The position numbers and the translations under genes were made by a program. Of a DNA stretch of 64,000 nt, positions 42,598-57,347 are shown one piece after another. The stretch is from NCBI RefSeq assembly GCF_003386095.1, contig NZ_QREG01000001.1:372001-436000 (forward strand), given 5' to 3'. Within the stretch, counting starts at the first letter, position 1. Each line of letters begins with the position of its first letter. The DNA is from Marinoscillum furvescens DSM 4134. Its GTDB lineage: Bacteria > Bacteroidota > Bacteroidia > Cytophagales > Cyclobacteriaceae. The notes beneath the pieces are model-generated. The model was not told the origin of the DNA, did no database searches, and worked only from the letters and a program-made list of their open reading frames with translations.

Positions 42598-43770
42598 TTA
42601 TCTTAGTGGTTCTTTGTAGGAGATGGATTGGCCAGCTATGTACGTCTTGCGGACGGTGATTAGGTTTACTTCCTGTACGAATTGCACAAGATTGGCAGGT
42701 TGTCCGATATGGAATGATGTTTCCGGTTTTCCCGAAAGTAGACTAAGAGGCATTGTAGATGCTTTCTTCCATGTGTCAGCCGGAGGCAATAGTTTTTTGC
42801 TAATGACATGATTGACACACCATAGTAATGACTGAGCCGAACCGGCCAGCAATTCTGGTTGACTGGCAAGGTGCAGGCGGCCTTCTCGGGTTAAGACCAC
42901 CTCACCTCCAATGTGCGTTTTGTGCTTCCCAGCCATCAATCCCGCAAATTGGGTGCAGTCGCTCACTAGTACGGAGTTGTCCGGTTTCGCTCTGAAAAGC
43001 ACTTTTAGGAATGAGTCTGGTAGATGAAAGCCGTCAGCAATCGCAGAAGCCCACAGCTGATCCTGAGCTAGCTGCTCCCAAATGTAATTGGGGTGTCTGG
43101 GTAGCATCAGATGGGCAGCATTACCAAGATGAGTAGACATGCGAGCTCCTGCCTTTACGGCAGTGTCTATTTGGGCTGGTGTGGCTGATGTATGTCCAAT
43201 AGACACTATCACATCATTTTCAACGCATTTCGTGATAAAAGCCGGTGCACTGTCCCACTCCGGTGATAGGGTGATGATTTTGATTTTACCTTCAGCTTTT
43301 TCCTGCCATTTAAGAAAAAGCTCCCAATCTGGCGCACACACATGAGCCAGGTCATGAGCTCCTCTGGCTCCATCGTCTTTAGAGATAAATGGCCCCTCCA
43401 GGTGAATGCCCCCGACAGCCTGATCGATCAAAGAGTTTGACTGACATGCTTGAGAAATGTTTGAAAGGAGGTCTCCGGTGGCTTGTGGAGAATTGGTGAT
43501 TACTGTAGGAAAAAAAGAGGTTACCCCCTCTGCAGCTAAAAGTCTCACGGTTTTTTCGAAATCTAAAGTCGTGATAGGAAAGGTGTTGAAATCTACGCCA
43601 CCGTATCCATTGACCTGAAGATCTACAAGTCCCGGTGCGATAAAAGGTAAATCATCTTGAGCTTGAGTAAGCGGGTTTACACTTTGGATGACACCTTTTA
43701 CAATTTCAATTTTTATAGGGTTTCCTGTTTCAAGATCCTTGCCGGTGATGTACTCTGGAGCTGCTGGCAT
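42598..43770 (-). CDS. nagA: N-acetylglucosamine-6-phosphate deacetylase
   Basis: It removes acetate from GlcNAc-6-P to give GlcN-6-P for NagB. Amidohydrolase blocks are FIAPGLVDLQVNGYGG, the metal glutamate in GIHLEGPFI, the histidines in IVSIGHTSA and STHLGNAA, and the late VLVSDC aspartate. ATG at 43770 (MPAAPEYITG) is used because the longer ORF would overlap the transporter stop at 43778. It lies at the left end of the glycan locus, in the order lacI, transporter, nagA. Confidence 0.92.
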   Translation of the reverse strand: MPAAPEYITGKDLETGNPIKIEIVKGVIQSVNPLTQAQDDLPFIAPGLVDLQVNGYGGVDFNTFPITTLDFEKTVRLLAAEGVTSFFPTVITNSPQATGDLLSNISQACQSNSLIDQAVGGIHLEGPFISKDDGARGAHDLAHVCAPDWELFLKWQEKAEGKIKIITLSPEWDSAPAFITKCVENDVIVSIGHTSATPAQIDTAVKAGARMSTHLGNAAHLMLPRHPNYIWEQLAQDQLWASAIADGFHLPDSFLKVLFRAKPDNSVLVSDCTQFAGLMAGKHKTHIGGEVVLTREGRLHLASQPELLAGSAQSLLWCVNHVISKKLLPPADTWKKASTMPLSLLSGKPETSFHIGQPANLVQFVQEVNLITVRKTYIAGQSISYKEPLR

Positions 43771-43777
43771 TGTGTTG

Positions 43778-45238
43778 TTAACTTGGAGTTGTTGATTCTT
43801 TTGTTGTGAGAGAGTTGTCCTTTCCGCTAATAAATCCAATCACAGTATAGAGAACGAGTGATGCGAGCATTGGAGTCGCAACCTGTAGCGCCAGGTTGGT
43901 GACGGTGAAAAGCTTGGTAGCAATAAAGGCAGCAAGTCCTCCTGCAATGGAAATGAGCGCTGCATTGCTTCCACTTTTGCGAAATGGTGGTAGTAGTCCC
44001 AATATCATAGGAATGGCAATTGGCCCCAGCAATGCGGCAAACCAAGAAATGATCAACCCAAACACTCCTCCGAAATGGCTGGCATTGAGGGCTACAAGTA
44101 TGGTGAGGGCGGTGAAAGTGAAGGTGGTTACGCGTGCTAGAATTAGAGATTTTTTCGAGTCAAATTTTCTGACGGAAGGAAAAATCACAGGAAGAATATC
44201 TCTGGTTATCACTGCTGACACGGTGTTGGAGTCGGATGATGTCATGGAAAGGGTATTGGCAAACATTGATGCCAAGACAAGTCCGATAAGTCCGGCAGGT
44301 AAAAATTCCATAGCCATTTTACCATAAGATACTGTAGGGTCTTCAAGATCTGTGAAAAATACCGGAGCGGCAAACATCGGGAATAGCAGGATCAGTGGCC
44401 AGAAGAAGTAAAGTGCAGAAGATAGAATTCCGGCTTTCCGAGCTTCTTTTTTGTTAGTGGAAGAGATGAACCTCGTGGACAGATTCCAGGTGCCTCCACT
44501 ATAGCTGAAGAAATTGATCAGCAGCATGCTGAGTGCAAAAGCTGGCGTGTACGGATCACTAAAAAGCTGTGAGTTAGATTCTGGAAGCCTGTCCCATACA
44601 GAAAACACACCACCAATGCCATCATCCAGCTTGATCAGTATCATAATGAACATAGTCAACCCGGCGAGAAGCTGTATGACAAACTGTGCAAAATCGTTCC
44701 ATACGTCTGCCCAGAGCCCGCCGATTATAATGTACAGTAGAGAGACCCCTCCGGTTAATAAAATCCCAAAGGTGAGAGAGCTCCCGGTGAAAGTATTGAG
44801 TAACACTGCAATAGCCGCTAGTTTGGCTCCCACATCAAATACTTTGGTAAGAGATCCACTCCAGGCGATGATTTGTTGCACTGGTAAATTATAGCGTTGC
44901 AGTAGATATTCTGTCGGCGACTGTATATTGGCTTCTATCCGCAGGTTTGCCCATCGTGGAGCGACCCAAATGGCGGCAAGTAATGTTGCCAGCCCAACTC
45001 CACAAGCCCACCAAACATAGAGCGAAAATCCGTGTGTGTAAGCAATGCCTGCATAAGCCACGAATACTGCTCCACTGTATCCTGAAACGTGATGCGATAT
45101 ACCCGAAAGCCACCATGGCAATTTGCCGCCGGCGGTGAAGAAATCTGCCGAATCTTTTACTTTCCAGTACGCGAAAAGACCGATCCCGAAAATAATTGCA
45201 AAATAAAGGATCAGTATGATCCAGTCTATTACCTGCAT
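43778..45238 (-). CDS. sodium:solute symporter (SSS family)
   Basis: A 486-residue SSS-family carrier with about 13 membrane segments; family blocks are FAYWKVKDSADFFTAGGKLPWW near the start, with sodium-site region in SSDSNTVSAVI. It probably carries a monosaccharide, most likely GlcNAc or another amino sugar given nagA seven bases downstream and the locus content. Specificity is inferred from context only. lacI ends 41 bases upstream, so the three genes are probably one operon. Confidence 0.88.
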   Translation of the reverse strand: MQVIDWIILILYFAIIFGIGLFAYWKVKDSADFFTAGGKLPWWLSGISHHVSGYSGAVFVAYAGIAYTHGFSLYVWWACGVGLATLLAAIWVAPRWANLRIEANIQSPTEYLLQRYNLPVQQIIAWSGSLTKVFDVGAKLAAIAVLLNTFTGSSLTFGILLTGGVSLLYIIIGGLWADVWNDFAQFVIQLLAGLTMFIMILIKLDDGIGGVFSVWDRLPESNSQLFSDPYTPAFALSMLLINFFSYSGGTWNLSTRFISSTNKKEARKAGILSSALYFFWPLILLFPMFAAPVFFTDLEDPTVSYGKMAMEFLPAGLIGLVLASMFANTLSMTSSDSNTVSAVITRDILPVIFPSVRKFDSKKSLILARVTTFTFTALTILVALNASHFGGVFGLIISWFAALLGPIAIPMILGLLPPFRKSGSNAALISIAGGLAAFIATKLFTVTNLALQVATPMLASLVLYTVIGFISGKDNSLTTKESTTPS

Positions 45239-45279
45239 ATTCTTAGTTTTTTTAAGCTTCCCGACTCACGTAGGAGTCG

Positions 45280-46314
45280 TTATTTATTGCTGGCTTTGCG
45301 AATGGATGATTCGCGTACGATCAGCTCCGTATTGAGTGTTATTATTTCTGACCCTATGTAGTTTTCCTCGTCTTCAATCTGGCGCGTCAGCAACCTAGCT
45401 GCGGCTTCACCCATCTGAAATGCACGGTCATTGACAGTGGTGAGGTTGGGTTCTATGATCCCTGAGATAGGATAGTTACTAAACCCGACAATAGCCACAT
45501 CCTTTGGTATATTGATGCCCGCTTTTCTAAACACCTGGATCACACTCACTGCCGTGTAGTCATTGGCGCAGAACACACCATCTGGGCGGCTCTCCATTTC
45601 CAGATATTTATTTGCACAAATCACACCTTCTTCATAGCTCAGGTTGTTAGTGGGCAAGATCAGGTCTGGGTCAATTTTCAGATGATGCTTTTTTAAAGCC
45701 GCAGTATATCCTTTTAGACGTTCTTTGAAAATATCCGTGTTTTGACTTCCGGCGATGTGAGCTATTCGTTTGCAGTTGTTCTTGATCAAGTGCTCTGTAG
45801 CTGTGAAGGCCGACTCAAAGTCATTCACAATAATTTTATTGGCATCTAGTGAAGACGGTACGCGATCATAAAAAACGAGTGGCATGCCCAGCTTTTTAAA
45901 CCTTTTGAAATGTTCGTAATCCTGTGTTTCTATAGAGAGACATACAATGATGCCTTCCACCATTCTGTTTTGTAGGATTTTGGTTATCTCCTTTTCTCTG
46001 ACGAAAGAATCTTTAGATTGAAAAATGGTGACATTATAACCAGTCTTATAAGCAAACTCTTCAATACCACTAATTACCCTTGAGTGGAAGTGAACGTCGA
46101 TCCTTGGGACTATTATGCCAATAGATTTTGTTTTTTTCTTCCGAAAACTTGCTGCGATCGAATTAGGGGTGAATCCCACTTCTTCCGCTTTTTCACGGAC
46201 TCTTTTTTTGGTCTCTTCACCTATAGAGTGGTGGTCTGCCAGCGCTCGAGAAATCGTGGAAGGCGATAAGTTTAATTTTTTTGCTAAGTCTTTAAGGGTG
46301 ATTCTTGAGCTCAT
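45280..46314 (-). CDS. LacI-family transcriptional repressor of the glycan locus
   Basis: A 344-residue LacI/GalR regulator: N-terminal HTH (ITLKDLAKKLNLSPSTISRALADH, with the hinge at about 50-60) and a periplasmic-binding-protein-like sensor (FCANDYTAVSVIQVF, VAIVGFSN). The ATG at 46314 is used; the ORF could be read further from 46398, but the HTH begins right at the chosen start. It is divergent from susC, and two palindromic operator candidates lie between, so it probably represses both operons and itself. The inducer is likely an amino sugar, unproven. Confidence 0.93.
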   Translation of the reverse strand: MSSRITLKDLAKKLNLSPSTISRALADHHSIGEETKKRVREKAEEVGFTPNSIAASFRKKKTKSIGIIVPRIDVHFHSRVISGIEEFAYKTGYNVTIFQSKDSFVREKEITKILQNRMVEGIIVCLSIETQDYEHFKRFKKLGMPLVFYDRVPSSLDANKIIVNDFESAFTATEHLIKNNCKRIAHIAGSQNTDIFKERLKGYTAALKKHHLKIDPDLILPTNNLSYEEGVICANKYLEMESRPDGVFCANDYTAVSVIQVFRKAGINIPKDVAIVGFSNYPISGIIEPNLTTVNDRAFQMGEAAARLLTRQIEDEENYIGSEIITLNTELIVRESSIRKASNK

Positions 46315-46320
46315 TGATAA

Positions 46321-46332
46321 ACAAACGTTTGT
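46321..46332. promoter_or_regulatory. LacI operator candidate O1 (lacI side)
   Basis: A perfect 12-base palindrome ACAAACGTTTGT, 6 bases upstream of the lacI ATG. A -7-like TATATTTA lies on the minus strand at 46334-46341, so bound repressor would block lacI initiation. Confidence 0.7.
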
Positions 46333-46342
46333 GTAAATATAA

Positions 46343-46377
46343 TGCAATAAAATTTTATTTGAGCGAGTTTTATTGCA
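46343..46377. repeat. inverted repeat in the lacI-susC control region
   Basis: TGCAATAAAA (46343-46352) is inverted as TTTTATTGCA (46368-46377) with a 15-base spacer. It differs from the LacI palindromes and may bind a second regulator, for example one of global carbon control. Confidence 0.45.
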
Positions 46378-46450
46378 ATAAATAGCTCCTTTAGCCATAT
46401 ATATAGTCTAACATAAGGATGTTTAATGTTTTTGCTGCGCATCTTTTTAC

Positions 46451-46462
46451 ACAAACGTTTGC
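46451..46462. promoter_or_regulatory. LacI operator candidate O2 (susC side)
   Basis: ACAAACGTTTGC, identical to O1 in 11 of 12 bases. Its TTTG (46458-46461) is also the -33 box of the susC promoter. Confidence 0.75.
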
Positions 46463-46489
46463 GTTAATGTTCCCTAAATTTTATATTTG
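46458..46489 (+). promoter_or_regulatory. susC promoter
   Basis: -33 TTTG (46458-46461), 20 bases, -7 TATATTTG (46482-46489): an essentially consensus Bacteroidota promoter, overlapped by operator O2 and 50 bases upstream of the susC ATG. Confidence 0.7.
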
Positions 46490-46539
46490 GATTACAGACA
46501 TTCCACCATGCTGTCATTGTACATCAACTTGTAAAATTT

Positions 46540-49500
46540 ATGGAGAGAAAAAAACAAGAAGGCACCCTCAGGAGTGGCAAGCTCGGGAAGTTTCCGACTT
46601 TGCTGCTTTTGATGATTCTGGGGTTGCTAACCCTGCACGGAAATGCACAGAGCCTTTCTGTTTCAGGAACGATCACTGACGGTGATAGTGGTGAGCCCTT
46701 GGTTGGGGTTACGGTCATTTTAAAAGGTACGTTCCGAGGGGTTACCTCGGATATCGATGGGCGCTACAGTATAGAGGTAGATGGTCCTTCTGACACACTA
46801 ACATTTTCTTATATAGGCTATGCGCCTCAGGATGTGTTAGTAGGTAATCAGACAGAATTGGATGTTTCTATGAAGTCTGCTGTAAATGAGCTGAATGAGC
46901 TTGTGGTAGTGGGTTATGGTGAGCAGAAAAAGAAAAACCTTACCGGGTCGGTAGTCTCTGTGGGTGGTGAAGCCATCGCTCAGACGAACATTCAGGATCC
47001 TATCTCGGTGCTGCAGGGTAGAGCAGCTGGTGTTCAGGTTGTTTCCAATTCTGGTGCTCCCGGTGGTGGTATGTCTATTCAGGTGAGAGGTAGTTCTTCA
47101 CTCAATGCAGGAAATGGTCCTTTATATGTAGTGGATGGTGTGCCGATAGAGTCGAGTACAATGTCGTCACTCAATGGTACAGAAAACTTTGGGCTGAATC
47201 CTCTGGCAGATATAAACCCAAAAGATATTGCTTCAATAGAAGTACTTAAGGATGCTGCATCCACTGCAATTTATGGATCGCGAGCAGCCAATGGTGTGGT
47301 TATGATCACTACAAAGAGAGGGCAGGAAGGAAAAGCTCAGCTCAACGTTGAATTCAGCACAGGAGTAAGCGAGGTAACCAGAACACTCGATGTTCTCAAT
47401 GCCAGCCAATACCGACAAGTGATTTTGGATGCATATGCAAACATGGCCAACCCTGTAGAGCCTACCTGGGCGCTGATCGATTCCCTAAGCCCGAGAAATA
47501 ATGGAGATGTAGACTGGCAAAACGAAGTATACCATAAGGCTAGACAGCACCAAATAGATGTTTCTGTTCGTGGTGGTTCAAAAAACATGAAGTATGCATG
47601 GAGTTCTTCTTACCTGGATCAGGATGGTATCATTCTCAACTCCAACTATAAAAGAATCACTTCTCGTTTGAATGTTGATTTTAATATGTCCGAGCATGTA
47701 AGAGCGGGCCAAAGCATCTCTTTTACTCATGGGATCAACAACAGAATCAATGCTGCAGGGTCAGGAAACCTGAGTGTGGTACGGGAGCTTTTGATTCGTC
47801 CTCCGACATATTCTATGTATTTGCCGGATGGCTCACTCAATGGGTATCAGTTTGGGAAACGAAACCCTGTCGGTCTGGCAGAACTGGCTACACACCTCAA
47901 TACCAGCAATCGTATCATTGGCAATCAATACCTCGAGTTTGATATTGTCGAAGATTTGAAATTTAGAAGTAATCTAAACCTGGATGTGATCACGATGGAC
48001 GAAGATGAGTTCGTTCCGTCAACACTGGATTATAGAGAAGGATACAACACCGGATCGGTAAGAGCAACTAACAATATAACATGGGGTAATGAGAACTATT
48101 TCAGTTTTCAGAAAACGTTTGGTGGAAGTCACAATCTTGGGGCTATCGCTGGTATGAGTTTCCAGAAATGGAGCTACAGAAGAACCGGACTAGATGGTAT
48201 GTATTTCTCTAGTGATAAGATACGAACGCTCAATGGAGCTGGTACCATTTCCAATCAGGAAGTCAATGTTGCCTCTGCACATTCTATGCTGTCTTATTTC
48301 GGACGGGTTTCTTACGATTATAAAGGGAAATACCTTTTTGAAGCAAATATGAGAGCTGATGGATCGTCCAGATTTGGTAAAGATCAGCGATTCGGATACT
48401 TCCCTTCTGCTTCCGTTGGGTGGAGATTTTCGGAAGAAGCAGTCTTCAGTGGGCTGTCATTTTTGGATGATGCCAAGCTGAGATTCAGCGCAGGACAGAC
48501 CGGAAATGAAGCCATCGGAAACTACACTTCTCAGGGAGAATTTGTAGTAGGCACAAACTATCTGGACTACTCAGGGGCTGCTCCATCTGTGATGCCAAAC
48601 TCTGGCCTTACATGGGAAACTACCACACAGTACGATGCAGGATTGGATCTGTCTCTACTTAGAAACAGAGTCATTTTAAATGCAGACGTGTACTTGAAAG
48701 TAACTGACGACCTGCTTTACAATGTGCCGATCCCTCGCACAACTGGATTTTCATACATCACCCAAAACATCGGAAGTATTGAGAATAAAGGGGTTGAGTT
48801 TTTCGTGAGCACCAAGAACCTTGTGAATGAGTTTAAGTGGAACACTAGTTTCAACATTAGTACCAACAAAAACAAGGTGAAAGATCTGCCAGACGAATTG
48901 TTGACTAATGGTTATATCCAAAATGGATCTTTCCACATTCTACAGGAAGGCATGCCTATTGGAACATTTTATGGATGGAAATTCGAAGGGGTTTACTCAA
49001 GGGATGAAGACAATGTAAATGGTGTAACTAACGGTGCTTTAGGTCCGGTCTATCAGGGCGGTGACCCAATCTGGGACGACCTGAACGGAGATCATATCAT
49101 TGATGAAGATGACAGACAGGTTATTGGCAATGCTCAGGCAGACTTTTTCGGAGGTATAACCAATGACTTCTCATATAAGAATTTCACTTTAAGTGTATTC
49201 TTCCAGTTCACCTATGGCAATGAAATCTACAGCGAGATCAATCACCAGAGAAACTCGGTGGTTCGCTACAACAACCTCTCTACAGCTGCGCTCAACAGAT
49301 GGCGTGAGCAGGGAGACGTTACAGATTTCCCGAGACCGGTTTTTGACGATCCATTACAGTCAGATAGCAGGGTGCAAAGCCGCTGGATAGAAGACGGCTC
49401 TTACATCAAACTTAAAAATGTGAACCTTAGCTACAGCGTGCCTTCAGTTTTGATTAACCGTGTTGGGCTAAGCACAATGACCGCATATGTCAATGCTACT

Positions 49501-49635
49501 AACTTGGTGACATGGACGAAATATACAGGTTATGATCCAGATGTAAACTCGCACAGTGGTTTGAGAATGGGTATAGACGAAGGCTCTTATCCACAGAGTC
49601 GTACGGTGATTGTAGGGTTAAAATTCGGATTTTAA
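46540..49635 (+). CDS. SusC/RagA-family TonB-linked outer membrane transporter
   Basis: A 1031-residue outer-membrane glycan importer. Order: signal peptide (to about residue 37), carboxypeptidase-D-like regulatory domain (about 40-115, GTITDGDSGEPLVGVTVILKG-type start), plug domain beginning LNELVVVGYGEQKKK and containing the RGxSSLNAGNGPLYVVDG-type motif (VRGSSSLNAGNGPLYVVDG), and a β-barrel ending VIVGLKFGF. It is the first gene of the right operon and partners SusD, 12 bases downstream. Substrate is inferred from the locus as an amino-sugar-containing oligosaccharide. Confidence 0.95.
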   Translation: MERKKQEGTLRSGKLGKFPTLLLLMILGLLTLHGNAQSLSVSGTITDGDSGEPLVGVTVILKGTFRGVTSDIDGRYSIEVDGPSDTLTFSYIGYAPQDVLVGNQTELDVSMKSAVNELNELVVVGYGEQKKKNLTGSVVSVGGEAIAQTNIQDPISVLQGRAAGVQVVSNSGAPGGGMSIQVRGSSSLNAGNGPLYVVDGVPIESSTMSSLNGTENFGLNPLADINPKDIASIEVLKDAASTAIYGSRAANGVVMITTKRGQEGKAQLNVEFSTGVSEVTRTLDVLNASQYRQVILDAYANMANPVEPTWALIDSLSPRNNGDVDWQNEVYHKARQHQIDVSVRGGSKNMKYAWSSSYLDQDGIILNSNYKRITSRLNVDFNMSEHVRAGQSISFTHGINNRINAAGSGNLSVVRELLIRPPTYSMYLPDGSLNGYQFGKRNPVGLAELATHLNTSNRIIGNQYLEFDIVEDLKFRSNLNLDVITMDEDEFVPSTLDYREGYNTGSVRATNNITWGNENYFSFQKTFGGSHNLGAIAGMSFQKWSYRRTGLDGMYFSSDKIRTLNGAGTISNQEVNVASAHSMLSYFGRVSYDYKGKYLFEANMRADGSSRFGKDQRFGYFPSASVGWRFSEEAVFSGLSFLDDAKLRFSAGQTGNEAIGNYTSQGEFVVGTNYLDYSGAAPSVMPNSGLTWETTTQYDAGLDLSLLRNRVILNADVYLKVTDDLLYNVPIPRTTGFSYITQNIGSIENKGVEFFVSTKNLVNEFKWNTSFNISTNKNKVKDLPDELLTNGYIQNGSFHILQEGMPIGTFYGWKFEGVYSRDEDNVNGVTNGALGPVYQGGDPIWDDLNGDHIIDEDDRQVIGNAQADFFGGITNDFSYKNFTLSVFFQFTYGNEIYSEINHQRNSVVRYNNLSTAALNRWREQGDVTDFPRPVFDDPLQSDSRVQSRWIEDGSYIKLKNVNLSYSVPSVLINRVGLSTMTAYVNATNLVTWTKYTGYDPDVNSHSGLRMGIDEGSYPQSRTVIVGLKFGF

Positions 49636-49647
49636 ACAGTGAGAATC

Positions 49648-51024
49648 ATGAAGAAATTAATACAAATCTATCTTGGAGTCCTCACGTTGACCATGGTGTC
49701 CTGTGAGATTTTGGACGAAGAACCTGTGAGTAGTTTCTCTGCGCAGGGTTTTTATCAAACGGCAAGCGATGCTCAGGCCGGAGTATATGGAATATACGAT
49801 GGGCTACAGTCTACGCTTTCCAGAAACTTCGCTTTTTGGGGAGAGGGCAGAGGCGATGCGGTTAATACCAGTCACTCTGGAGACCCGCTGGCCTTGATGC
49901 AAAACAACTTGAACACCACCTTGAATTCTGCAAGCTGGAATACGCTATATGAGACCATCAGTAGAGCAAACTATGCGATCAAGTACGTGCCGCAAGTATT
50001 CAATGGTGAAAGTGAAAATGGACAGCAGTTGCTTGGGCAGGCCAGAGCACTCCGTGCGTTGTGTTACTTCTATGCGGTGAGAGTATGGGGAGATGTGCCT
50101 TTGGTTACAGAGCCGTACGAAAGTATAGATCAGGATATCTTCATCGAGAAGACAGATCGTGAGCTTGTGCTCGATCAGGTAGTGGAAGATTTATTGTTTG
50201 CTTCTGAAAACTGTCGTGCAACCTTTGGAGGAGAGCGTGATCGCATCTTGTTTACTCAGGGTGGAGCAGACGCTTTGCTTACCCATGTGTACATGTGGAG
50301 ACACGAATATGCGCTGGCTATCGAAACGGCCGATCGAGTATTGAATAACTCACTTTACTCGCTAGTAACGATCAGTGAATGGTCCAGTATTTTCACTACA
50401 GGTTTGAGTCGCGAAACCATTTTCGAAATAGGTTACAATGAGACTCAGACAAACTTCCTGAGAGTGCTTTATGCTTTGGGCTCGGATAGTGACTACTTCC
50501 CAAGCGAAGACTTTATGGACTCATTTGAGGAGGGAGACGAGCGTCAGACACTCATTTACGATGTGACACTAGAACAGCCAAGACAAATCTGGAAGTTTTT
50601 CGGTAAAGGTTTTAGCGACGAAAGTGCCGATCCTTCTCAAAACAATATCGTGCTATTGAGACTGGCAGATATCATGTTGCTAAAAGCTGAAGCACATGCA
50701 AATCTGATAGAAACGGATGCCAGTAATGTGGACGAGGCATTGAGTCTGCTCAATACCATCAGAACTCGTGCTGGTCTGGATGAGTTGACACAAAGCGATG
50801 CAGAGACCCTCTACGGAGATATCGAATCTGCTATACTTCACGAACGATCTATCGAGCTTTCATACGAAGGACACAGATGGTTTGACCTTGTAAGAAACAA
50901 CAAGGCGGTAGAAGTGATGGGGCCATTAAATGGTCTAAGTGATGAGCTCAACCTGGTTTGGCCAATACATCAGGATGCGATCAATAGAAACCCTAATCTA
51001 TTGCAGAATGACTTCTACAGATAG
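49648..51024 (+). CDS. SusD/RagB-family glycan-binding lipoprotein
   Basis: A 458-residue outer-membrane lipoprotein that captures glycan over the SusC barrel. The lipobox cysteine is Cys19 (TMVSC). Family features: RALRALCYFYAVRVWGDVPL, TPR-like helices, and the C-terminal ILHERSIELSYEGHRWFDLVR. ATG at 49648 is preferred over a GTG at 49639. It directly follows susC. Confidence 0.95.
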   Translation: MKKLIQIYLGVLTLTMVSCEILDEEPVSSFSAQGFYQTASDAQAGVYGIYDGLQSTLSRNFAFWGEGRGDAVNTSHSGDPLALMQNNLNTTLNSASWNTLYETISRANYAIKYVPQVFNGESENGQQLLGQARALRALCYFYAVRVWGDVPLVTEPYESIDQDIFIEKTDRELVLDQVVEDLLFASENCRATFGGERDRILFTQGGADALLTHVYMWRHEYALAIETADRVLNNSLYSLVTISEWSSIFTTGLSRETIFEIGYNETQTNFLRVLYALGSDSDYFPSEDFMDSFEEGDERQTLIYDVTLEQPRQIWKFFGKGFSDESADPSQNNIVLLRLADIMLLKAEAHANLIETDASNVDEALSLLNTIRTRAGLDELTQSDAETLYGDIESAILHERSIELSYEGHRWFDLVRNNKAVEVMGPLNGLSDELNLVWPIHQDAINRNPNLLQNDFYR

Positions 51025-51062
51025 GATTCCATTATTTGTTAGATCCAAACGAAATATCTAAA

Positions 51063-52517
51063 ATGAAAAGAAATAAACTAAATATACCTTTCGGATGGTT
51101 GCAGTCAATGTTGCTAGTGCTACTAACATTGTCCAGCTGCGAAACCCAGGACGATTTCGAATATAAAAAGAGCAACTCAACGGGTGAGCTCGGAGTTTCG
51201 GCGTGGGAGTACATTCAGAGTAGCGAGTACTTCACACTTTTGGAAGAGGCTATCAACATTACAGAGCTACAGTCTTACTACTCTGGAGAAACGGCCAAAA
51301 CGTTCATTATTCCTACAAATACTGCATTTGAGGAATATCTGGAGAGCAACTCTTACACCAGTCTGGACGAGGTGCCCGTGCCAATCCTTCGCAATGCACT
51401 CATGTACCACATAGTGAATGCCGAGGTGATTTTTACGGATCCAGAACTGTTTTCCAGCAATAAGCCTATTGCTTATGAGACTGGCAATGGTCAGACTATG
51501 TACCTATCGCACAATAGCAACTTTGTCGGTTACGTAAATGAAGGCACCAGCAAGCAATGGGATATCAGCACTTCTAACCTTGAATCTACCAATGGCATTA
51601 TACATATCGTAAATTCGGTCGTGTACTTCTCTGCTCCTATTGGAGATCTGTCAGTGCCAGACCCTACGATAGAGCGGGACACAGCTTTTGTACTTTATGA
51701 TACTTACGTAAACGGTGGTTCACAATCAGGCACCAATTTCGGAACGAATGCTAAAATCTTAATGAAAAATGCTTCCGGAGATGGCGGGCTTTATCAGAGA
51801 AGACCATTTCTAATGTTTGATCTTCGTGATCTGAATAAAGAGGGTGTTATAACCGACCTAGAGTTACAACTTTCTATTTCATTCACGCATGGAAAAGGTG
51901 TAGGCCTGTATGTATATGAGACAGATACCAACTGGACAGAGATGGGGCTCAATTGGAACAATGCGCCTTTCCCTACTGGTGAAGCGATTAGCTCTATCAC
52001 TTCTGTGAAGCTGGCTGCAGGGGAATACTTCGCTTTTAATCTCACCGATTATTATCAGTCTTTGGATGGTAAGAAAAGGATTTCTCTAATGCTTGATGCG
52101 GATGAGGAAAGCAATGAGACTGATGAGTTTGGTTCGAAAGAAAACGGCACACTTGCTATGCCTATGCTTATCGCTACCATTGCTACAGGTGTCAATTCAC
52201 TAGAACTGGCAACCAACACCGGATTCACCGTAGAGGCTGAGGGTTCGTACGCCTGGAATACTGAGATGCTGGAAGCAACAGGAGCGGCGGCTATTGATCT
52301 TATCTACACGGTGGAGGAAATCCCTACAGCGGGCTGGCTTGTAAAAGGAGCGAGCATTCTGAGCGTGGGAGATCGTTTCACGCAAAATGATATCGACGTG
52401 ATGAGTCTGCTCTACATCAATGATGGTACAGGTCCGTCTGATAAAGTGGTTTTGACAGCAAAAGACCGTACTGGTGGCAGTATTGATTCATTCGAAGTAG
52501 CCATTAGCATACAGTAG
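51063..52517 (+). CDS. surface lipoprotein: fasciclin + DNRLRE + cadherin-like domains
   Basis: A 484-residue lipoprotein (lipobox cysteine Cys26, TLSSC) in the position normally held by a SusE/SusF-type surface glycan-binding protein. Domains in order: a fasciclin-like region (about 40-190: FTLLEEAINITELQ, FIIPTNTAFEEYL, IIHIVNSVVYF), a DNRLRE/CBM96-like jelly roll (about 205-370: DTYVNGGSQSGTNFGTNAKI, FLMFDLRDL, NWTEMGLNWNNAP), and a CSPG/cadherin-3-like repeat (about 385-484: FTQNDIDVMSLLYINDG, VVLTAKDRTGG). The combination is unusual and could bind glycans or other matrix. ATG at 51063 gives the signal peptide. Confidence 0.8.
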   Translation: MKRNKLNIPFGWLQSMLLVLLTLSSCETQDDFEYKKSNSTGELGVSAWEYIQSSEYFTLLEEAINITELQSYYSGETAKTFIIPTNTAFEEYLESNSYTSLDEVPVPILRNALMYHIVNAEVIFTDPELFSSNKPIAYETGNGQTMYLSHNSNFVGYVNEGTSKQWDISTSNLESTNGIIHIVNSVVYFSAPIGDLSVPDPTIERDTAFVLYDTYVNGGSQSGTNFGTNAKILMKNASGDGGLYQRRPFLMFDLRDLNKEGVITDLELQLSISFTHGKGVGLYVYETDTNWTEMGLNWNNAPFPTGEAISSITSVKLAAGEYFAFNLTDYYQSLDGKKRISLMLDADEESNETDEFGSKENGTLAMPMLIATIATGVNSLELATNTGFTVEAEGSYAWNTEMLEATGAAAIDLIYTVEEIPTAGWLVKGASILSVGDRFTQNDIDVMSLLYINDGTGPSDKVVLTAKDRTGGSIDSFEVAISIQ

Positions 52518-52528
52518 ATAAATCAAAG

Positions 52529-53293
52529 ATGAAAAAAACATTAAGAACCTCTGGGATAAAACTACTCGTACTGATCACGCTAACATTTAGTGGATGTTCG
52601 GAAGGGCACACGGCCAATGACACGCCTCCTGAGCCGGAATCCCAAACCAGAATCATCGAATTTTCTGGTTATGAGTGGGTGGTTAGAAATTCCAATAATG
52701 AAACAGTGGGCCCTGGTCCAAACTATTTTTCTGATTCGGAAGAAAACGTATGGGTTGACGACAAGGGGAGGTTGCATTTAAAAATTGTACAGCAAGGTGG
52801 AATTTGGTACTGTTCAGCAATCTCCCTGCGTCGTTCACTTGGTTACAACAAATATGTGTTTTACGTCGGTAGTCGAGTAGATCAGCTAGATCAAAATGTG
52901 GTTGGAGGCTTGTTTACCTATATGAATGACTATGAGGAGATCGATATCGAATTTTCCCGATGGTCAGATCCCGACAATCAGGATGCACAGTTTGCAGTGC
53001 AGCCATCACATGAGTCTGGAAATAAAACGAGGTTCGACCTTGCTATTACTGACAGTCTGACCACTCATTACTTTGACTGGCAGCCTGACAAAATAGATTT
53101 TGCCAGCTACAGAGGTCATACGCTCGAGCCGGCAGACAGTAGTGCTATAATCAGTTCGTGGAATTATACAGGAAACAGTGTTCCCCCAGACAGTGAAGAG
53201 CGATTGAAAATCAATCTATGGCTTTTCAGAGGAAGAATGCCATCTAATCTTCAGGAGCAAGAAATGATTATAGACAGGGTAGAGATATACTGA
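52529..53293 (+). CDS. GH16-like glycoside hydrolase lipoprotein
   Basis: A 254-residue lipoprotein (lipobox Cys23, FSGC) of the GH16-like β-jelly-roll family. The catalytic motif ExDxE is visible as EIDIE (Glu137, Asp139, Glu141), followed by FSRW and an AQFAVQPSH segment. GH16 enzymes cut internal β-1,3/1,4 bonds, including laminarin, agar, keratan/poly-LacNAc and mucin O-glycans. In this amino-sugar locus a keratan- or O-glycan-like target is possible, but that is inferred. It is in line with susC-susD. Confidence 0.82.
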   Translation: MKKTLRTSGIKLLVLITLTFSGCSEGHTANDTPPEPESQTRIIEFSGYEWVVRNSNNETVGPGPNYFSDSEENVWVDDKGRLHLKIVQQGGIWYCSAISLRRSLGYNKYVFYVGSRVDQLDQNVVGGLFTYMNDYEEIDIEFSRWSDPDNQDAQFAVQPSHESGNKTRFDLAITDSLTTHYFDWQPDKIDFASYRGHTLEPADSSAIISSWNYTGNSVPPDSEERLKINLWLFRGRMPSNLQEQEMIIDRVEIY

Positions 53294-53315
53294 TTTAATA
53301 ACCAGAGATTGGAAT

Positions 53316-53339
53316 GCCTGGAGTCCCCTAACTCCAGGC
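53316..53339 (+). terminator. intercistronic hairpin between the GH16-like gene and nagB
   Basis: A perfect 9-base stem GCCTGGAGT (53316-53324) / ACTCCAGGC (53331-53339) with a six-base loop. The T tract after it is weak, so it may partly terminate or stabilise the upstream mRNA and lower nagB/GH20 expression. Confidence 0.55.
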
Positions 53340-53389
53340 CTATTTCAGATACTCAGCTCACTTTTTAATTGAAATAATTAGCATAAAGA

Positions 53390-54145
53390 ATGACAGAATT
53401 AGATAGAGATATCCATGTTTTTCCTTCTGCCCTTTCGGCAGGAACCGCCATAGGAGAAGCTATCGAGAAGTGCATAGTCAAGCTGCAGAAGAATAAGAAG
53501 ACGATTCGGATGATTTTTGCGGCTGCACCTTCGCAGAATTATATGTTGGAGTATTTGACCAAATCTACCAGCATCAACTGGTCTCAGATAGAAGCTTTTC
53601 ATATGGATGAATACCTGGGGTTGCCAGCACAGGCGCCACAGCTTTTTTCCAGTTATTTGGAGGAAAGACTTTTCTCAAAAGTGAATTTCAAAGCCAGTCA
53701 TAAGATAGACAGCCATAAGGAGATATCTGAAGAGATAGCGCACTATTCGAATCTTATTACAGCACATCCAATTGATATTGTCTGCCTGGGAATAGGTGAA
53801 AATGGTCACATTGCTTTCAACGATCCTCCGGTAGCGGATTTCGATGATCCGGTGGTCATGAAAGAAGTGGTTTTGGATGAAGCATGTCGCATGCAGCAGG
53901 TTCACGACGGATGTTTTGGTAGTATAGATGAAGTGCCAAAGACCGCATTGACGCTTACGATACCTACACTTTTGGATGCAGAAAACCTGTTTTGTATCGT
54001 ACTTGGAAAGAACAAGAGCGAAGCTGTAAGAGATACTTTGAAAGGATCTATTTCAACGGATTGTCCGGCTTCCATCCTTACCCGGCATCCTAATTGTCAG
54101 TTCTATTTTGATGAAGAAGCATTTGGAGAAGTAACGGACATTTAG
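53390..54145 (+). CDS. nagB: glucosamine-6-phosphate deaminase
   Basis: It converts glucosamine-6-phosphate to fructose-6-phosphate and ammonia. The 251-residue chain has the family blocks FHMDEYLG, the conserved GIGENGHIAFNDPP and the C-terminal FCIVLGKNKSEAV with PASILTRHPN. It would complete the pathway from NagA. It begins 96 bases after the GH16-like gene, past a hairpin, and leads directly to two hexosaminidases. Confidence 0.94.
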   Translation: MTELDRDIHVFPSALSAGTAIGEAIEKCIVKLQKNKKTIRMIFAAAPSQNYMLEYLTKSTSINWSQIEAFHMDEYLGLPAQAPQLFSSYLEERLFSKVNFKASHKIDSHKEISEEIAHYSNLITAHPIDIVCLGIGENGHIAFNDPPVADFDDPVVMKEVVLDEACRMQQVHDGCFGSIDEVPKTALTLTIPTLLDAENLFCIVLGKNKSEAVRDTLKGSISTDCPASILTRHPNCQFYFDEEAFGEVTDI

Positions 54146-54154
54146 AAACTAGAT

Positions 54155-55723
54155 ATGACGATCAAAACAGGAATATCAACAGGTTTAAAATTCGGGTTGC
54201 TGGTATGCTGTCTGGCAGTGATGCTCTCTTTTGGCGTTTATGCGCAGGGTAGTGAGTCGGCAGGTTTTCCGGTCAAGGGATTTCATCTTGATCTCCGAAT
54301 TCAGGTAATGACGCCAGAGGCACTTAAGTCTTTTACTGATCAATTGTCTGAGATGGGAATGAATACCTTGGTGATGGAGTGGGAAGGAACCTATCCATTT
54401 GAAAAACATGCGACCATCTCCAATGAGTATTCTTACACCCGCGAAGAAATACTTGATTTCGTGGCATATTGTGAAAACCTGGGCATTGATGTGATTCCCT
54501 TGCAACAGAGCCTTGGTCATGTGGAGTATATTCTGAGAAATCCTCGGTATAGCCACCTGAAGGAGGATAGGAAAGACATTTCTCAGATCTGTCCGATGAA
54601 AAGCGCTGAAAGTAAAGCTCTTTTCACAGACCTCTTTTCAGACCTGGTTTCCACTCACGACTCAGACTTTATTCATATCGGCGGAGATGAGACTAAGCTA
54701 CTGGGACACTGTCCGGTTTGTGCTGCCAGAGTAGAGGAAGTAGGTAAGTCAAAGCTTTTTGTAGATCATATGAAGATGATCGCTGAGATCGTAATTGACC
54801 TTGGCAAAAAACCTGTCATGTGGGCGGATATTATTTTGAAGTATCCAGAAGCAGCGGAGGAGCTACCTGCCGAGACCATTTTCATTGATTGGAACTACGG
54901 TTGGCGAATCAATCACTTTGGAAATATTTCTGACTTGCAGGAAAAGGGCTTTGTTTTTTGGGGAGCGCCTTCGATCAGATGTCATCCAGATAACTGGTTT
55001 GTTACTGATTGGCCCACGCATTTCAAGAATCAAAAAGAGTTCATTCCATATGCCCGTGAAGCAGGCTATGAAGGCATGATCATGACATCCTGGTCTACGA
55101 CTGGTGTGTATGGTTTCACTTGGGATGTAGGCTATGATGTCATAGACATGGTTCAAATTCGAAATACCTACCCTATGTCAGGTTTTCGTGTTTTGATGGC
55201 TAGTTATGATCAGACGCTGGACCAAAGCGAGGTTTTCGATCCAGAAACGTTTGTCTTGAAATATGCCAAAGAGAGGTTTGGTTTGAAGAAGCAGGACGCT
55301 GCTACGTTATGGCAGTTTCTTTCAGTTCGCCCAGAACTTATAGCCAATGGTAAGCCCCAATGGAGTGAGAGCGTTTCACAAATGGCAGAGAAATATGCTG
55401 CAGTGAGAGATCCATTGGTTTCGGTCAAGCCAAATAAAAATGAAGAGGAGTTCGATCACTTCAAATTGATGGCGGATTTGCGCATGCATTATCTGGACTT
55501 CAAACAAGTAGAGGCACGATACAATTCAGAGATCTATACACCTGATCAAGCTGCTGGTCTCCTTTCCGAGCTGGATAGAATTTTGGCAGAGGCCAAAGCT
55601 TTGGACGCGAGGTTTACAGAGCTGAATAAAGGCTTTTTGTATGATTCAGAGCTTCAGGAGCAAAACGAACTGAGGGTACAGCAAATCCACGTACTATACG
55701 ATCGCCTTGCTAAATTAAAATAA
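54155..55723 (+). CDS. GH20 β-N-acetylhexosaminidase, short form without the GH20b domain
   Basis: A 522-residue exported enzyme (signal peptide to about residue 31, FGVYAQ). It begins directly with the TIM-barrel GH20 domain: HLDLRIQ, LQQSLGHVEYIL, and the catalytic Asp178-Glu179 pair in FIHIGGDETK. The N-terminal zincin-like GH20b domain of most hexosaminidases is absent, as in the HexD-like type. A C-terminal helical region follows (about 360-522). It removes terminal GlcNAc or GalNAc; preference is unknown. It lies nine bases after nagB. Confidence 0.88.
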   Translation: MTIKTGISTGLKFGLLVCCLAVMLSFGVYAQGSESAGFPVKGFHLDLRIQVMTPEALKSFTDQLSEMGMNTLVMEWEGTYPFEKHATISNEYSYTREEILDFVAYCENLGIDVIPLQQSLGHVEYILRNPRYSHLKEDRKDISQICPMKSAESKALFTDLFSDLVSTHDSDFIHIGGDETKLLGHCPVCAARVEEVGKSKLFVDHMKMIAEIVIDLGKKPVMWADIILKYPEAAEELPAETIFIDWNYGWRINHFGNISDLQEKGFVFWGAPSIRCHPDNWFVTDWPTHFKNQKEFIPYAREAGYEGMIMTSWSTTGVYGFTWDVGYDVIDMVQIRNTYPMSGFRVLMASYDQTLDQSEVFDPETFVLKYAKERFGLKKQDAATLWQFLSVRPELIANGKPQWSESVSQMAEKYAAVRDPLVSVKPNKNEEEFDHFKLMADLRMHYLDFKQVEARYNSEIYTPDQAAGLLSELDRILAEAKALDARFTELNKGFLYDSELQEQNELRVQQIHVLYDRLAKLK

Positions 55724-55745
55724 CATTCTAACGAGATTCTAAAAC

Positions 55746-57347
55746 ATGCATATATTCAAATCATTGATTGTAATGGTTTTTGCTTTATCCTTTTGTCAGG
55801 TGAGCGCTCAAGCAGTAAAAATCATACCAGAGCCGGAATCCATTGTTTATGGAGAGGGTGTTTTCAAACTAGGTACTCAAACTAAGGTCATAGCATCTCC
55901 CGAGCTGGAAAATGAAGCTGATTTTCTAGTTGGTATTTTGGAAAGCGGATTTGGATCAAAACCTAAAACCGCTAAAAAAGGAAAAGGAATAGTTCTTCAA
56001 TTTGACAACTCGCTGTTAGAATCAATGGGCGAAGAGGGATACTCTCTTTCTGTAACTTCTGGTGGTGTAAATATTTCTGCGGCAACTCCCGCAGGAGTGT
56101 TCTATGGTATACAGTCCTTTCGTCAACTGCTCCCACAGGATTTCGAATTTGTAAATTGTGAAGGAGTTGAAATCCCCGTTCTCGATATCAGTGATAGTCC
56201 CAGATTTCCATGGAGAGCATTTATGCTGGACGAGTCTCGTCATTTCAAAGGAATGGCAGAAGTGAAAAAGCTGTTGGATCAGATGGCTTTACTCAAACTC
56301 AATACTTTTCACTGGCATCTTACAGATGATCAGGGCTGGCGGATTGAGATAAAAAAATATCCAAAGCTCACGGAAGTTGGAGGTAAACGAAAGGATACTC
56401 AAACCAGCTTCAGAAGTGAAGAGCGCACCGGAGTGCCTCACGAAGGTTTTTATACCCAGGAACAGATCAAAGAGGTTATCGCTTACGCTGCTGACCGTCA
56501 TATTACCATAGTGCCAGAGATAGAAATGCCTGGGCATGCCATGGCTGCTGTGGCTGCTTATCCGTGGTTAGGTTCGCTGGGAACGACTACCGAAGTGTCT
56601 GAGATTTTCGGTAAAATGGATGACTCTTTCCGGATTTCAGATCCTGAAGTTGTGAGTTTCCTCAAAGATGTACTGGATGAGGTGATGGCGTTGTTCCCAG
56701 GAGAGGTAATCCATGTAGGGGGTGATGAAGTAAACCTAAAACCATGGGAGGAGTCGGAAGATGTTCAGGCATTTATGAAAGCCAAAGACTTGAATTCCCC
56801 TGTCGACTTACAGATATATTTTACCAATGAGATTTCCAGCTATGTCGATGCTGCAGGTAAGCGTATGATGGGATGGAATGACATCATGGGAGATGATATT
56901 CATGAAGAGAGAGAAGGGCAAGATACCAAAGTGGAACAGGAGCTCGCAAAATCTGCGATCGTACATTTTTGGAAAGGTGACCTGAAACTAATCACACGAG
57001 CGGTGCAGGATGGTTACGATGTGGTGAACTCCAATCACTGGGATACTTATCTCGACTACACATTTAAGCGTACTCCATTGTCTAAGTCTTACGCTTTCAA
57101 TCCTATTCCAGAAGGTTTAGATGAAAAATACCATCATCATATACTTGGTCTGGGCACGCAGATGTGGAGCGAATGGATACCAGAAGTGTCTCAAATGCAG
57201 CGTCAGGTTTTTCCTCGACTAGCCATTTATGCAGAAGTAGGCTGGACACAATTGGAAAATAAGGATTTCGATCGCTTTAGCGAATCACTGGAATCTTTAA
57301 AAACCAGGTGGAAGCTAGAAGGGATAAACTATTATGATGGCGAATAG
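55746..57347 (+). CDS. GH20 β-N-acetylhexosaminidase, classical two-domain form
   Basis: A 533-residue exported enzyme (signal peptide to about residue 21). It has the zincin-like GH20b domain (about 25-150) and the GH20 barrel with FHWHLTDDQGWRIEIKKYP, PEIEMPGHAMAA and the catalytic Asp327-Glu328 in HVGGDEVN. It releases terminal GlcNAc or GalNAc. Together with the short GH20 gene upstream it gives two different exo-hexosaminidases in one operon, suggesting two linkage types in the target glycan. A terminator follows. Confidence 0.95.
   Translation: MHIFKSLIVMVFALSFCQVSAQAVKIIPEPESIVYGEGVFKLGTQTKVIASPELENEADFLVGILESGFGSKPKTAKKGKGIVLQFDNSLLESMGEEGYSLSVTSGGVNISAATPAGVFYGIQSFRQLLPQDFEFVNCEGVEIPVLDISDSPRFPWRAFMLDESRHFKGMAEVKKLLDQMALLKLNTFHWHLTDDQGWRIEIKKYPKLTEVGGKRKDTQTSFRSEERTGVPHEGFYTQEQIKEVIAYAADRHITIVPEIEMPGHAMAAVAAYPWLGSLGTTTEVSEIFGKMDDSFRISDPEVVSFLKDVLDEVMALFPGEVIHVGGDEVNLKPWEESEDVQAFMKAKDLNSPVDLQIYFTNEISSYVDAAGKRMMGWNDIMGDDIHEEREGQDTKVEQELAKSAIVHFWKGDLKLITRAVQDGYDVVNSNHWDTYLDYTFKRTPLSKSYAFNPIPEGLDEKYHHHILGLGTQMWSEWIPEVSQMQRQVFPRLAIYAEVGWTQLENKDFDRFSESLESLKTRWKLEGINYYDGE

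What the first reader, a model, noticed from the sequence alone, without database searches (positions are those of the whole stretch)
42598..57347. Self-contained amino-sugar glycan locus with an unusual enzyme set
Seen: LacI regulator, SSS carrier, NagA, SusC/SusD, a fasciclin-DNRLRE-cadherin-like lipoprotein, GH16-like, NagB and two structurally different GH20 enzymes. Known: GH20 and NagA/NagB point to GlcNAc or GalNAc; GH16 includes keratanases and O-glycan-active enzymes. Inference: the target is a GH16-cleavable, hexosamine-rich polymer (for example poly-LacNAc, keratan- or O-glycan-like), not chitin, since no GH18 or GH19 gene is present. No GlcNAc kinase is in the locus either.
Basis: partly seen in the sequence, partly recalled or inferred. 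Interest (0 to 1): 0.7.

Follow-up and report, generated by a model that had tools for sequence, protein, structure and literature searches.

The report
Amino-sugar eating locus with GH16-like enzyme
A bacterium of the Bacteroidota group carries a self-regulated set of ten genes that appears to capture, cut up and burn sugar chains made of N-acetylglucosamine, using an uncharacterised enzyme where a known relative uses chitinases; the enzyme's target is predicted, not proven.

Summary
The ten genes are present and intact, in two divergent operons (LacI-SSS-NagA; SusC-SusD-lipoprotein-GH16-like-NagB-GH20-GH20). The unit is real: of seven homologous loci in distant Bacteroidota, five keep all ten genes and all seven keep five of them. 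A LacI-type operator occurs twice in the divergent promoter, and the exact motif occurs nowhere else in the genome.

The GH16-like protein has a predicted lichenase-like fold and an intact ExDxE motif, but no Pfam match. It belongs to an uncharacterised family most of whose other members lie beside GH3. This locus's branch lacks a glutamate kept by 33 of 34 relatives and by lichenases.

The genome encodes GH18 proteins on another contig, and its only detected NagA is here. Best reading: a locus for chitin-like beta-GlcNAc oligo/polymer, the GH16-like protein being the surface endo-enzyme; a complete relative genome has the locus and no detected GH18, though five of six have one. Substrate is inferred. 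New variant of a known kind.

The parts
42598..43770 (-). NagA-like N-acetylglucosamine-6-phosphate deacetylase (probable start ATG at 43770; the listed ORF begins at 43839)
   Evidence: TIGR00221 E 2.9e-52, below cut-off; translation from 43770; only NagA-like gene found in the genome with this protein as query
43778..45238 (-). SSS-family sodium:solute symporter, probable inner-membrane amino-sugar carrier
   Evidence: PF00474 E 3.3e-33; substrate inferred
45280..46314 (-). LacI-family regulator (probable start at Met29 of the listed ORF, which runs to 46398)
   Evidence: PF00356, PF13377; operator lies just upstream of Met29
46321..46334 (.). operator 2 (ACAAACGTTTGTGT), in front of lacI
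   Evidence: exact match; second sites at the lacI end of the intergenic region in L009 and L010
46449..46464 (.). operator 1 (ACACAAACGTTTGCGT), in front of susC; its TTG (46459-46461) could be the -33 element
   Evidence: exact match; present upstream of susC in L008, L009, L010 and L041, altered at one central base in L042, not seen in L006
46482..46489 (+). TATATTTG, fits the Bacteroidota -7 box TAnnTTTG (consensus recalled)
   Evidence: sequence; TAnnTTTG at the same aligned position in four of five loci
46540..49635 (+). SusC/RagA TonB-linked outer-membrane importer
   Evidence: TIGR04056 906.5 bits
49639..51024 (+). SusD-like surface glycan-binding lipoprotein (probable start ATG at 49648)
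   Evidence: PF07980 E 4.7e-27
51036..52517 (+). Fasciclin-CBM96-Cadherin_3 lipoprotein, probable surface glycan-binding protein (probable start ATG at 51063)
   Evidence: PF02469, PF24517, PF16184; present in all seven loci
52529..53293 (+). GH16-like lipoprotein, motif E137-x-D139-x-E141; residue 97 is Ala where lichenases and 33 of 34 relatives outside the locus have Glu; candidate surface endo-enzyme
   Evidence: no Pfam match; profile hit to lichenases; fold; clade-specific residue
53390..54145 (+). NagB-like glucosamine-6-phosphate deaminase
   Evidence: PF01182 E 2e-18; TIGR00502 125 bits, below cut-off
54155..55723 (+). GH20 nearest to HEX-2 and GH20C, predicted periplasmic from its signal (my reading)
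   Evidence: PF00728 partial; best solved relative 8qk1 by sequence and by fold
55746..57347 (+). classical two-domain GH20 beta-N-acetylhexosaminidase, predicted periplasmic from its signal (my reading)
   Evidence: PF00728 E 1.5e-103 and PF02838

Best explanation
A self-regulated N-acetylglucosamine-glycan utilization locus, organised like the chitin locus of Flavobacterium johnsoniae but with a GH16-like lipoprotein in place of GH18 chitinases. Proposed route: the SusD-like and Fasciclin-CBM96 lipoproteins hold the glycan at the cell surface; the GH16-like lipoprotein cuts it internally; SusC imports the pieces; two periplasmic GH20 enzymes of different types release single GlcNAc (and perhaps GalNAc) from the ends; the SSS carrier brings the sugar inside; a kinase from elsewhere (ROK type likely) phosphorylates it; NagA and NagB turn it into fructose-6-phosphate. 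A LacI repressor sits on two operators in the divergent promoter. The likely substrate is a chain of beta-linked GlcNAc, chitin or chitin-like, since no enzyme for any other sugar is present. Shown by calls: gene set, conservation, operator sequences, predicted fold class, intact catalytic motif, single detected NagA. Inferred: cellular locations, repressor binding and inducer, reaction order, and above all that the GH16-like enzyme cuts GlcNAc chains.
For: Ten genes intact. The same ten occur in Gramella KN1008, Gramella AN32, Zobellia uliginosa and G614; seven in G329; six in G204. Five are in 7 of 7 loci: SusC, SusD, Fasciclin-CBM96 lipoprotein, GH16-like, HEX-2-type GH20. The NagA here is the only one detected in the own genome, and the matching locus gene is the only one in G614, G670 and G671. 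The exact operator pattern occurs in the 6 Mb genome only at the two sites here and recurs in relatives. G329, one contig and 100% complete, has the locus and no GH18 match. GH16-like protein: E-D-E of the motif kept in 41 of 41 sequences; lichenase-like fold. The locus members form one side of a branch with support 100/98, with Ala/Gly at residue 97 in 7 of 7, against Glu in 33 and Gln in 1 of 34 others; the loss could make room for an N-acetyl group. ExDxE GH16 enzymes acting on chitin exist: Crh (PMC6458159, passages read). The glutamate's place in lichenase subsite -2 is recalled.
Against: No assay, transcript or ligand evidence. Most family members outside the locus lie beside a GH3 (22 of 35 contexts by BLAST); the five checked by Pfam carry the GH3 C-terminal and Fn3 domains, as beta-glucosidases do (recalled), which suggests an ancestral beta-glucan role. 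Its closest folds are beta-glucanases; Crh5 ranks only 50th. The residue-97 change maps to a single branch: one event, no independent test. NagA and NagB score below curated cut-offs. Five of six searched genomes with the locus also have at least one GH18, so GH18 enzymes could make the first cut. The HEX-2 relative prefers GalNAc (PMC11308363), so GlcNAc alone is not certain.
Confidence: 0.5

Rival explanations
1. Salvage arm for chitin digestion: secreted GH18 proteins on contig C6 cut chitin; this locus only imports and finishes the chito-oligosaccharides. The GH16-like protein is accessory or trims something else.
For: The own genome has a 1505-aa protein with two GH18 domains and CBM5/12 and a 782-aa GH18-CBM5/12 protein, both with type IX tails; BLAST against the window's proteins found no NagA, GH20 or SusC/SusD partner in the fetched stretch around them. 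The only detected NagA and two of three GH20 are in this locus. Five of six searched genomes with the locus have a GH18.
Against: G329 (complete) has the locus but no detected GH18. The GH16-like gene is in 7 of 7 loci; but these loci were found through that gene, so its constancy is by construction and weighs little.
Confidence: 0.22
2. The GH16-like enzyme is still a beta-glucanase; the locus attacks chitin-glucan or glucan-coated material, freeing GlcNAc-rich pieces while glucose is used by other loci.
For: Best sequence and fold matches are lichenases; family members lie beside GH3 in 22 of 35 contexts. A fungal-cell-wall locus with GH18 and GH16 is known in Chitinophaga pinensis (PMC10449523, abstract and passages read).
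Against: No beta-glucosidase among the ten genes and no GH3-type neighbour in L041/L042 by BLAST (the other loci were not searched for GH3); a glutamate kept in 33 of 34 others is lost in this clade.
Confidence: 0.16
3. The target contains beta-GalNAc (for example LacdiNAc-type or another GalNAc/GlcNAc polymer), with the HEX-2-type GH20 removing GalNAc.
For: Second GH20 is nearest to Trichuris suis HEX-2, which prefers GalNAc, including in LacdiNAc motifs (PMC11308363 abstract and passages).
Against: No tagatose-phosphate pathway gene among the ten; NagB scores better as glucosamine- than as galactosamine-phosphate enzyme (125 against 79 bits).
Confidence: 0.08
4. One reading: keratan, poly-LacNAc or mucin O-glycan locus.
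For: GH16 O-glycanases (6t2o and relatives) appear in the fold list; GH20 enzymes can remove GlcNAc from such glycans.
Against: No galactosidase, sulfatase, fucosidase or sialidase among the ten genes; the motif is ExDxE, not the ExDxxE recalled for GH16_3.
Confidence: 0.04

Closest known systems
Flavobacterium johnsoniae chitin utilization locus (ChiUL; PMC5127042, passages read)
   Same: SusC/SusD-type import, periplasmic GH20, NagB and an inner-membrane sugar carrier in one locus; route GlcNAc to fructose-6-phosphate
   Different: ChiUL has GH18 chitinases ChiA and ChiB, two CusC/D pairs and a two-component regulator, with NagA elsewhere; here a GH16-like protein, one SusC/D pair, LacI, NagA inside, and two GH20 types
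GH16_21 lichenases (1GBG, 1MAC)
   Same: predicted jelly-roll fold, ExDxE motif, FTY segment where lichenases have FTY
   Different: 17-20% identity in the structural alignments to lichenases; the glutamate of the lichenase DCAEYRS/DCGENRS segment is Ala/Gly in the locus clade; longer protein with a lipoprotein-type signal
Fungal Crh chitin transglycosylases (GH16_18/19; PMC6458159, PMC6827312, passages read)
   Same: ExDxE GH16 fold; shows that such a fold can act on chitin
   Different: not among the sequence matches; Crh5 only rank 50 by fold, 12% identity; fungal, transglycosylase
Chitinophaga pinensis fungal cell wall locus (PMC10449523, abstract and passages read)
   Same: pairs hexosamine-glycan enzymes with a GH16 in one locus
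   Different: its GH16 is a beta-1,3-glucanase with CBM6 and works beside GH18
Trichuris suis HEX-2 (GH20 subfamily 1) and S. pneumoniae GH20C
   Same: nearest fold and sequence for the second GH20; catalytic D-E pair (D178-E179) and W223, W246, Y248 kept in 7 of 7
   Different: 16% identity in the fold alignment, model pLDDT only 78; bacterial, in a PUL

Membership tests
Polysaccharide utilization locus (PUL) | adjacent susC-susD pair | tested here: met
   TIGR04056 and PF07980 over cut-off
Polysaccharide utilization locus (PUL) | linked glycoside hydrolases and regulator | tested here: met
   two GH20 and LacI over cut-off, plus GH16-like
Polysaccharide utilization locus (PUL) | induction by the target glycan | not testable with these tools
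   no transcript data
Chitin utilization locus (ChiUL) | linked multimodular GH18 chitinase (ChiA) | tested here: not met
   no GH18 in the window locus; own GH18 are on contig C6
Chitin utilization locus (ChiUL) | GH20, NagB, inner-membrane sugar carrier | tested here: met
   (NagB below its equivalog cut-off; carrier substrate inferred)
GH16 | catalytic E-x-D-x(-x)-E | tested here: met
   EIDIE here; E, D and E kept in 41 of 41 sequences
GH16 | Pfam PF00722 match | tested here: not met
   none for P0007 or any of 5 orthologues; of 4 relatives outside the locus scanned, 2 match, E 4e-5 (over cut-off) and 8e-4 (under), and 2 do not
GH16 | jelly-roll fold close to solved GH16 | tested here: met
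   model pLDDT 86; 49 of the 50 listed matches appear to be GH16 (one is a lectin); best hit E 3e-9, TM 0.59/0.69
GH16_21 (lichenase subfamily) | assignment by CAZy subfamily HMM | not testable with these tools
   no CAZy models on hand
GH16_3 (O-glycanases) | ExDxxE bulge motif (recalled for this subfamily) | tested here: not met
   motif is ExDxE in all 33 aligned members
GH20 | PF00728 over cut-off | tested here: met
   both proteins
GH20 subfamily 1 (HEX-2/HEXD) | closest to HEX-2, with catalytic D-E and pocket residues | tested here: inconclusive
   best sequence and fold hit 8qk1; D178, E179, W223, W246, Y248 invariant in 7 of 7; no tree of GH20 was made
NagA equivalog | TIGR00221 over 225.65 bits | tested here: not met
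   177.9 bits
NagB equivalog | TIGR00502 over 236.9 bits | tested here: not met
   125.4 bits

The most novel reading that the evidence does not exclude
The GH16-like protein founds a bacterial GH16 branch that cuts chitin-type beta-GlcNAc chains by the ordinary carboxylate-nucleophile mechanism of GH16, rather than by the substrate-assisted mechanism of GH18 and GH20. It would let some Bacteroidota live on chitin-like polymer without any GH18, as genome G329 suggests. The switch from a beta-glucanase ancestor would be marked by loss of the conserved glutamate at position 97.
Probability: 0.35. Interest if true: 0.75.

Novelty: new variant of a known kind. Interest (0 to 1): 0.5.

Why it matters
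Chitin is a very large nitrogen-rich carbon pool, and genomes are usually scored as chitin users by GH18/GH19. If GH16-like enzymes can replace them, such genomes are miscounted, and an enzyme group with a different chemistry is available. Even if not, the locus gives a clean test case: a ten-gene unit with its own operators, found in at least four families, and one substitution that predicts a change of substrate.

Tried and rejected
Keratan/poly-LacNAc/O-glycan: rejected for lack of the other exo-enzymes and for the motif type. Chance neighbourhood: rejected, the unit recurs in distant genomes. A wider LacI regulon including a kinase: exact operator matches lie only at this locus (3 hits on 2 palindromic sites); with one mismatch allowed the genome has 13 hits in all against 18 for the backward-pattern control, so near matches are not above background and no kinase could be assigned. 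ROK kinases: eight matches; two (L081, L082) score best as fructokinase/GlcNAc kinase but below cut-offs. GH19: no match in six genomes, but the control rang nowhere, so this proves nothing. A conserved RNA hairpin between the GH16-like gene and nagB: strong in the window and L008, not in L009, L010, L041. Paper on 8PXU (nearest solved relative of the classical GH20): one irrelevant hit. Literature for this gene set: searches listed nothing I could recognise as describing it; 36 found no paper, the lists of 76, 99 and 102 were capped (12 of 284, 10 of 34, 8 of 91 shown), and the library is open-licence only. PULDB was not searchable.

Corrections: notebook entry 2 speaks of two tandem HEX-2-type GH20 in G329; that is one gene seen in two overlapping loci. 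Entry 3 calls the longer SusC of G204 STN-extended; Pfam found no STN domain there.
Full report
What is there. The interval 42598-57347 holds ten intact genes in two divergent operons. Leftward: lacI, an SSS symporter, nagA. Rightward: susC, susD, a Fasciclin-CBM96-Cadherin_3 lipoprotein, a GH16-like lipoprotein, nagB, a HEX-2-type GH20 and a classical GH20. The flanks are unrelated: trmD, rimM, rpsP and 2-oxoglutarate dehydrogenase on the right; on the left two ORFs without Pfam match (41144-42402), a histidine kinase and response regulator, and secA (not every left-hand ORF was scanned). The locus is therefore self-contained. NagA and NagB are recognised but score below their equivalog cut-offs.

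Is it a real unit? Close copies of the GH16-like protein are rare: 2 of 291 genomes of the order, the own genome included, and 3 named loci from a scan of the GTDB species collection, which reaches close relatives only. Two more came from a profile search of the class. Seven loci are thus known: window, Gramella KN1008 (L008), Gramella AN32 (L009), Zobellia uliginosa (L010), G614 (L041/L090), G204 (L006/L007) and G329 (L042/L089). All were found through the GH16-like gene. Five of seven have all ten genes, in partly different order. G204 (77% complete) has six: SusC, SusD, lipoprotein, GH16-like and both GH20. It lacks lacI; a sigma-70-type factor and a FecR protein lie in front of an N-terminally longer SusC instead, and no NagA was found in that genome. 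G329 has seven, plus an MFS carrier and a 25-27% identical amidohydrolase, and no classical GH20 in the fetched stretch. SusC, SusD, the lipoprotein, the GH16-like protein and the HEX-2-type GH20 are in 7 of 7.

Regulation. A palindrome around CAAACGTTTG lies in front of susC (46449-46464) and again in front of the probable lacI start (46321-46334). The first is followed by TATATTTG, a fit to the recalled Bacteroidota -7 box, and could supply the -33 element. The susC-side site is present in L008, L009, L010 and L041, and altered at one central base in L042; it was not seen in front of susC in L006, where lacI is missing. In the own genome the exact pattern occurs only at these two sites; near matches are at background. 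The LacI regulon is thus likely confined to this locus. Binding and inducer are not known.

The GH16-like protein. No Pfam or NCBIfam model reports it. A profile of 33 sequences hits lichenases at E 2e-8, and the predicted model (pLDDT 86) has GH16 folds at the top, lichenases first (3o5s, E 3e-9), with Crh5 at rank 50. E137, D139 and E141 are invariant in the 33 aligned sequences and in the 8 left out of that alignment. It is the ExDxE type. The passages read of PMC6827312 say that ExDxE and ExDxxE divide the family, with lichenases and XTH on the ExDxE side; that GH16_3, which holds the O-glycanases, is ExDxxE is recalled. The protein begins with a lipoprotein-type signal whose cysteine is invariant in the five orthologues first aligned.

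Its family. The profile search found matches in 36 of 395 genomes of the class. Of the 38 matches one is the window; the other 37 were fetched with flanks as L041-L077, and two of these are further copies of this locus. Of the other 35 contexts, 22 have a GH3-like neighbour, 17 a CBM30-type lipoprotein, 6 a XerD-like neighbour only, 1 two GH18 proteins in a SusC locus (L054), and 1 a GH20 (L064); one (L077, the weakest hit) shows no GH16-like ORF. These assignments are BLAST hits at E <= 1e-10 to 18 reference proteins; Pfam was run on five of the GH3 proteins, and all five have GH3 N, GH3 C and Fn3 domains. Several contigs are only 3-5 kb long, so the counts are lower bounds. The seven locus members form one side of a branch, 100/98 (tree of 33). 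At residue 97 they have Ala or Gly (7 of 7); the others have Glu (33) or Gln (1) of 34 (first seen on 26 of them). The HMM alignment puts that Glu on the glutamate in the lichenase segment DCAEYRS/DCGENRS; its role in subsite -2 is recalled, not read. The change is on one branch, so it is suggestive only.

The GH20 pair. The classical enzyme has both GH20 domains. The other matches part of the catalytic model; its nearest solved relative by sequence and by fold is Trichuris suis HEX-2 (8qk1), followed in the fold list by S. pneumoniae GH20C (model pLDDT 78). HEX-2 prefers GalNAc but also takes GlcNAc (PMC11308363, abstract and passages). D178, E179, W223, W246 and Y248 are invariant in 7 of 7. 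At E <= 1e-60 this GH20 occurs in 5 of 395 genomes of the class; in the two without this locus (G059, G401) it again lies near NagB- and NagA-like genes, which supports a role in amino-sugar catabolism.

The genome around it. GH20: three in the genome, two here; the third is next to a SusC/SusD pair. GH18: two proteins on contig C6, both with CBM5/12 and type IX tails; BLAST against the window's proteins showed no SusC/SusD, NagA or GH20 in the fetched stretch. NagA: only this one detected. ROK: eight matches. The locus NagA is also the only one detected in G614, G670 and G671. G329, a single complete contig, has no GH18 hit; the other five of six searched genomes with the locus do (the genome of L008 was not held).

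Reading. With only exo-hexosaminidases, one GH16-like endo candidate and the GlcNAc pathway, the simplest substrate is a chain of beta-linked GlcNAc: chitin, chito-oligosaccharides or a chitin-like polymer. GH16 enzymes with ExDxE do act on chitin in fungi (PMC6458159, passages). Whether the bacterial protein is itself the chain cutter, or GH18 enzymes make the cuts and it is accessory, cannot be settled from sequence. G329 favours the first; the GH3-linked relatives, the lichenase-like fold and the GH18 genes of the other genomes favour caution.

Novelty. The kind of system (a SusC/D locus for GlcNAc glycans) is known from the F. johnsoniae ChiUL (PMC5127042, passages). The replacement of GH18 by this GH16 branch, LacI with paired operators, and two GH20 types make it a new variant. 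The literature searches listed nothing I could recognise as this gene set, within an open-licence library and partly capped lists.

Noticed in passing
L006/L007 (G204:C113): In this relative the lacI gene is missing, and a sigma-70-type factor and a FecR protein lie in front of a susC with a longer N-terminus: the same locus seems to have changed its regulator.
   Followed up: partly
window 53294-53389: Strong hairpin (-23.9 kcal/mol, z -2.9) between the GH16-like gene and nagB; also in L008, not in L009, L010, L041.
   Followed up: yes
L044-L047, L049, L057: A GH16-like gene of the same family sits beside a XerD-like recombinase in six genomes (five of them of family f81), with none of the other 16 reference proteins nearby.
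   Followed up: partly
L054 (G582:C6): A member of the GH16-like family in a SusC locus with two GH18 proteins, a second possible GlcNAc-glycan association; it keeps the glutamate at position 97.
   Followed up: partly
L048-L076: A recurrent cluster: GH16-like with GH3 (22 contexts), a CBM30-type lipoprotein (17) and two proteins of about 570 and 630 aa (17 and 15); both lack Pfam matches in L052, and the larger also in L064.
   Followed up: partly
L092/L093 (own contig C6): Secreted two-GH18 protein with CBM5/12 downstream of a GH16 that resembles kappa-carrageenase (below the NCBIfam cut-off) and a CBM6 protein, all with type IX tails.
   Followed up: partly
L114/L115 (own contig C3 near 132920): A second LacI gene next to an ORF that looks like a TonB-dependent receptor, with a near-identical palindrome (TTACAAACGTTTGCAA) between them: possibly a paralogous regulator with a similar operator.
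   Followed up: partly
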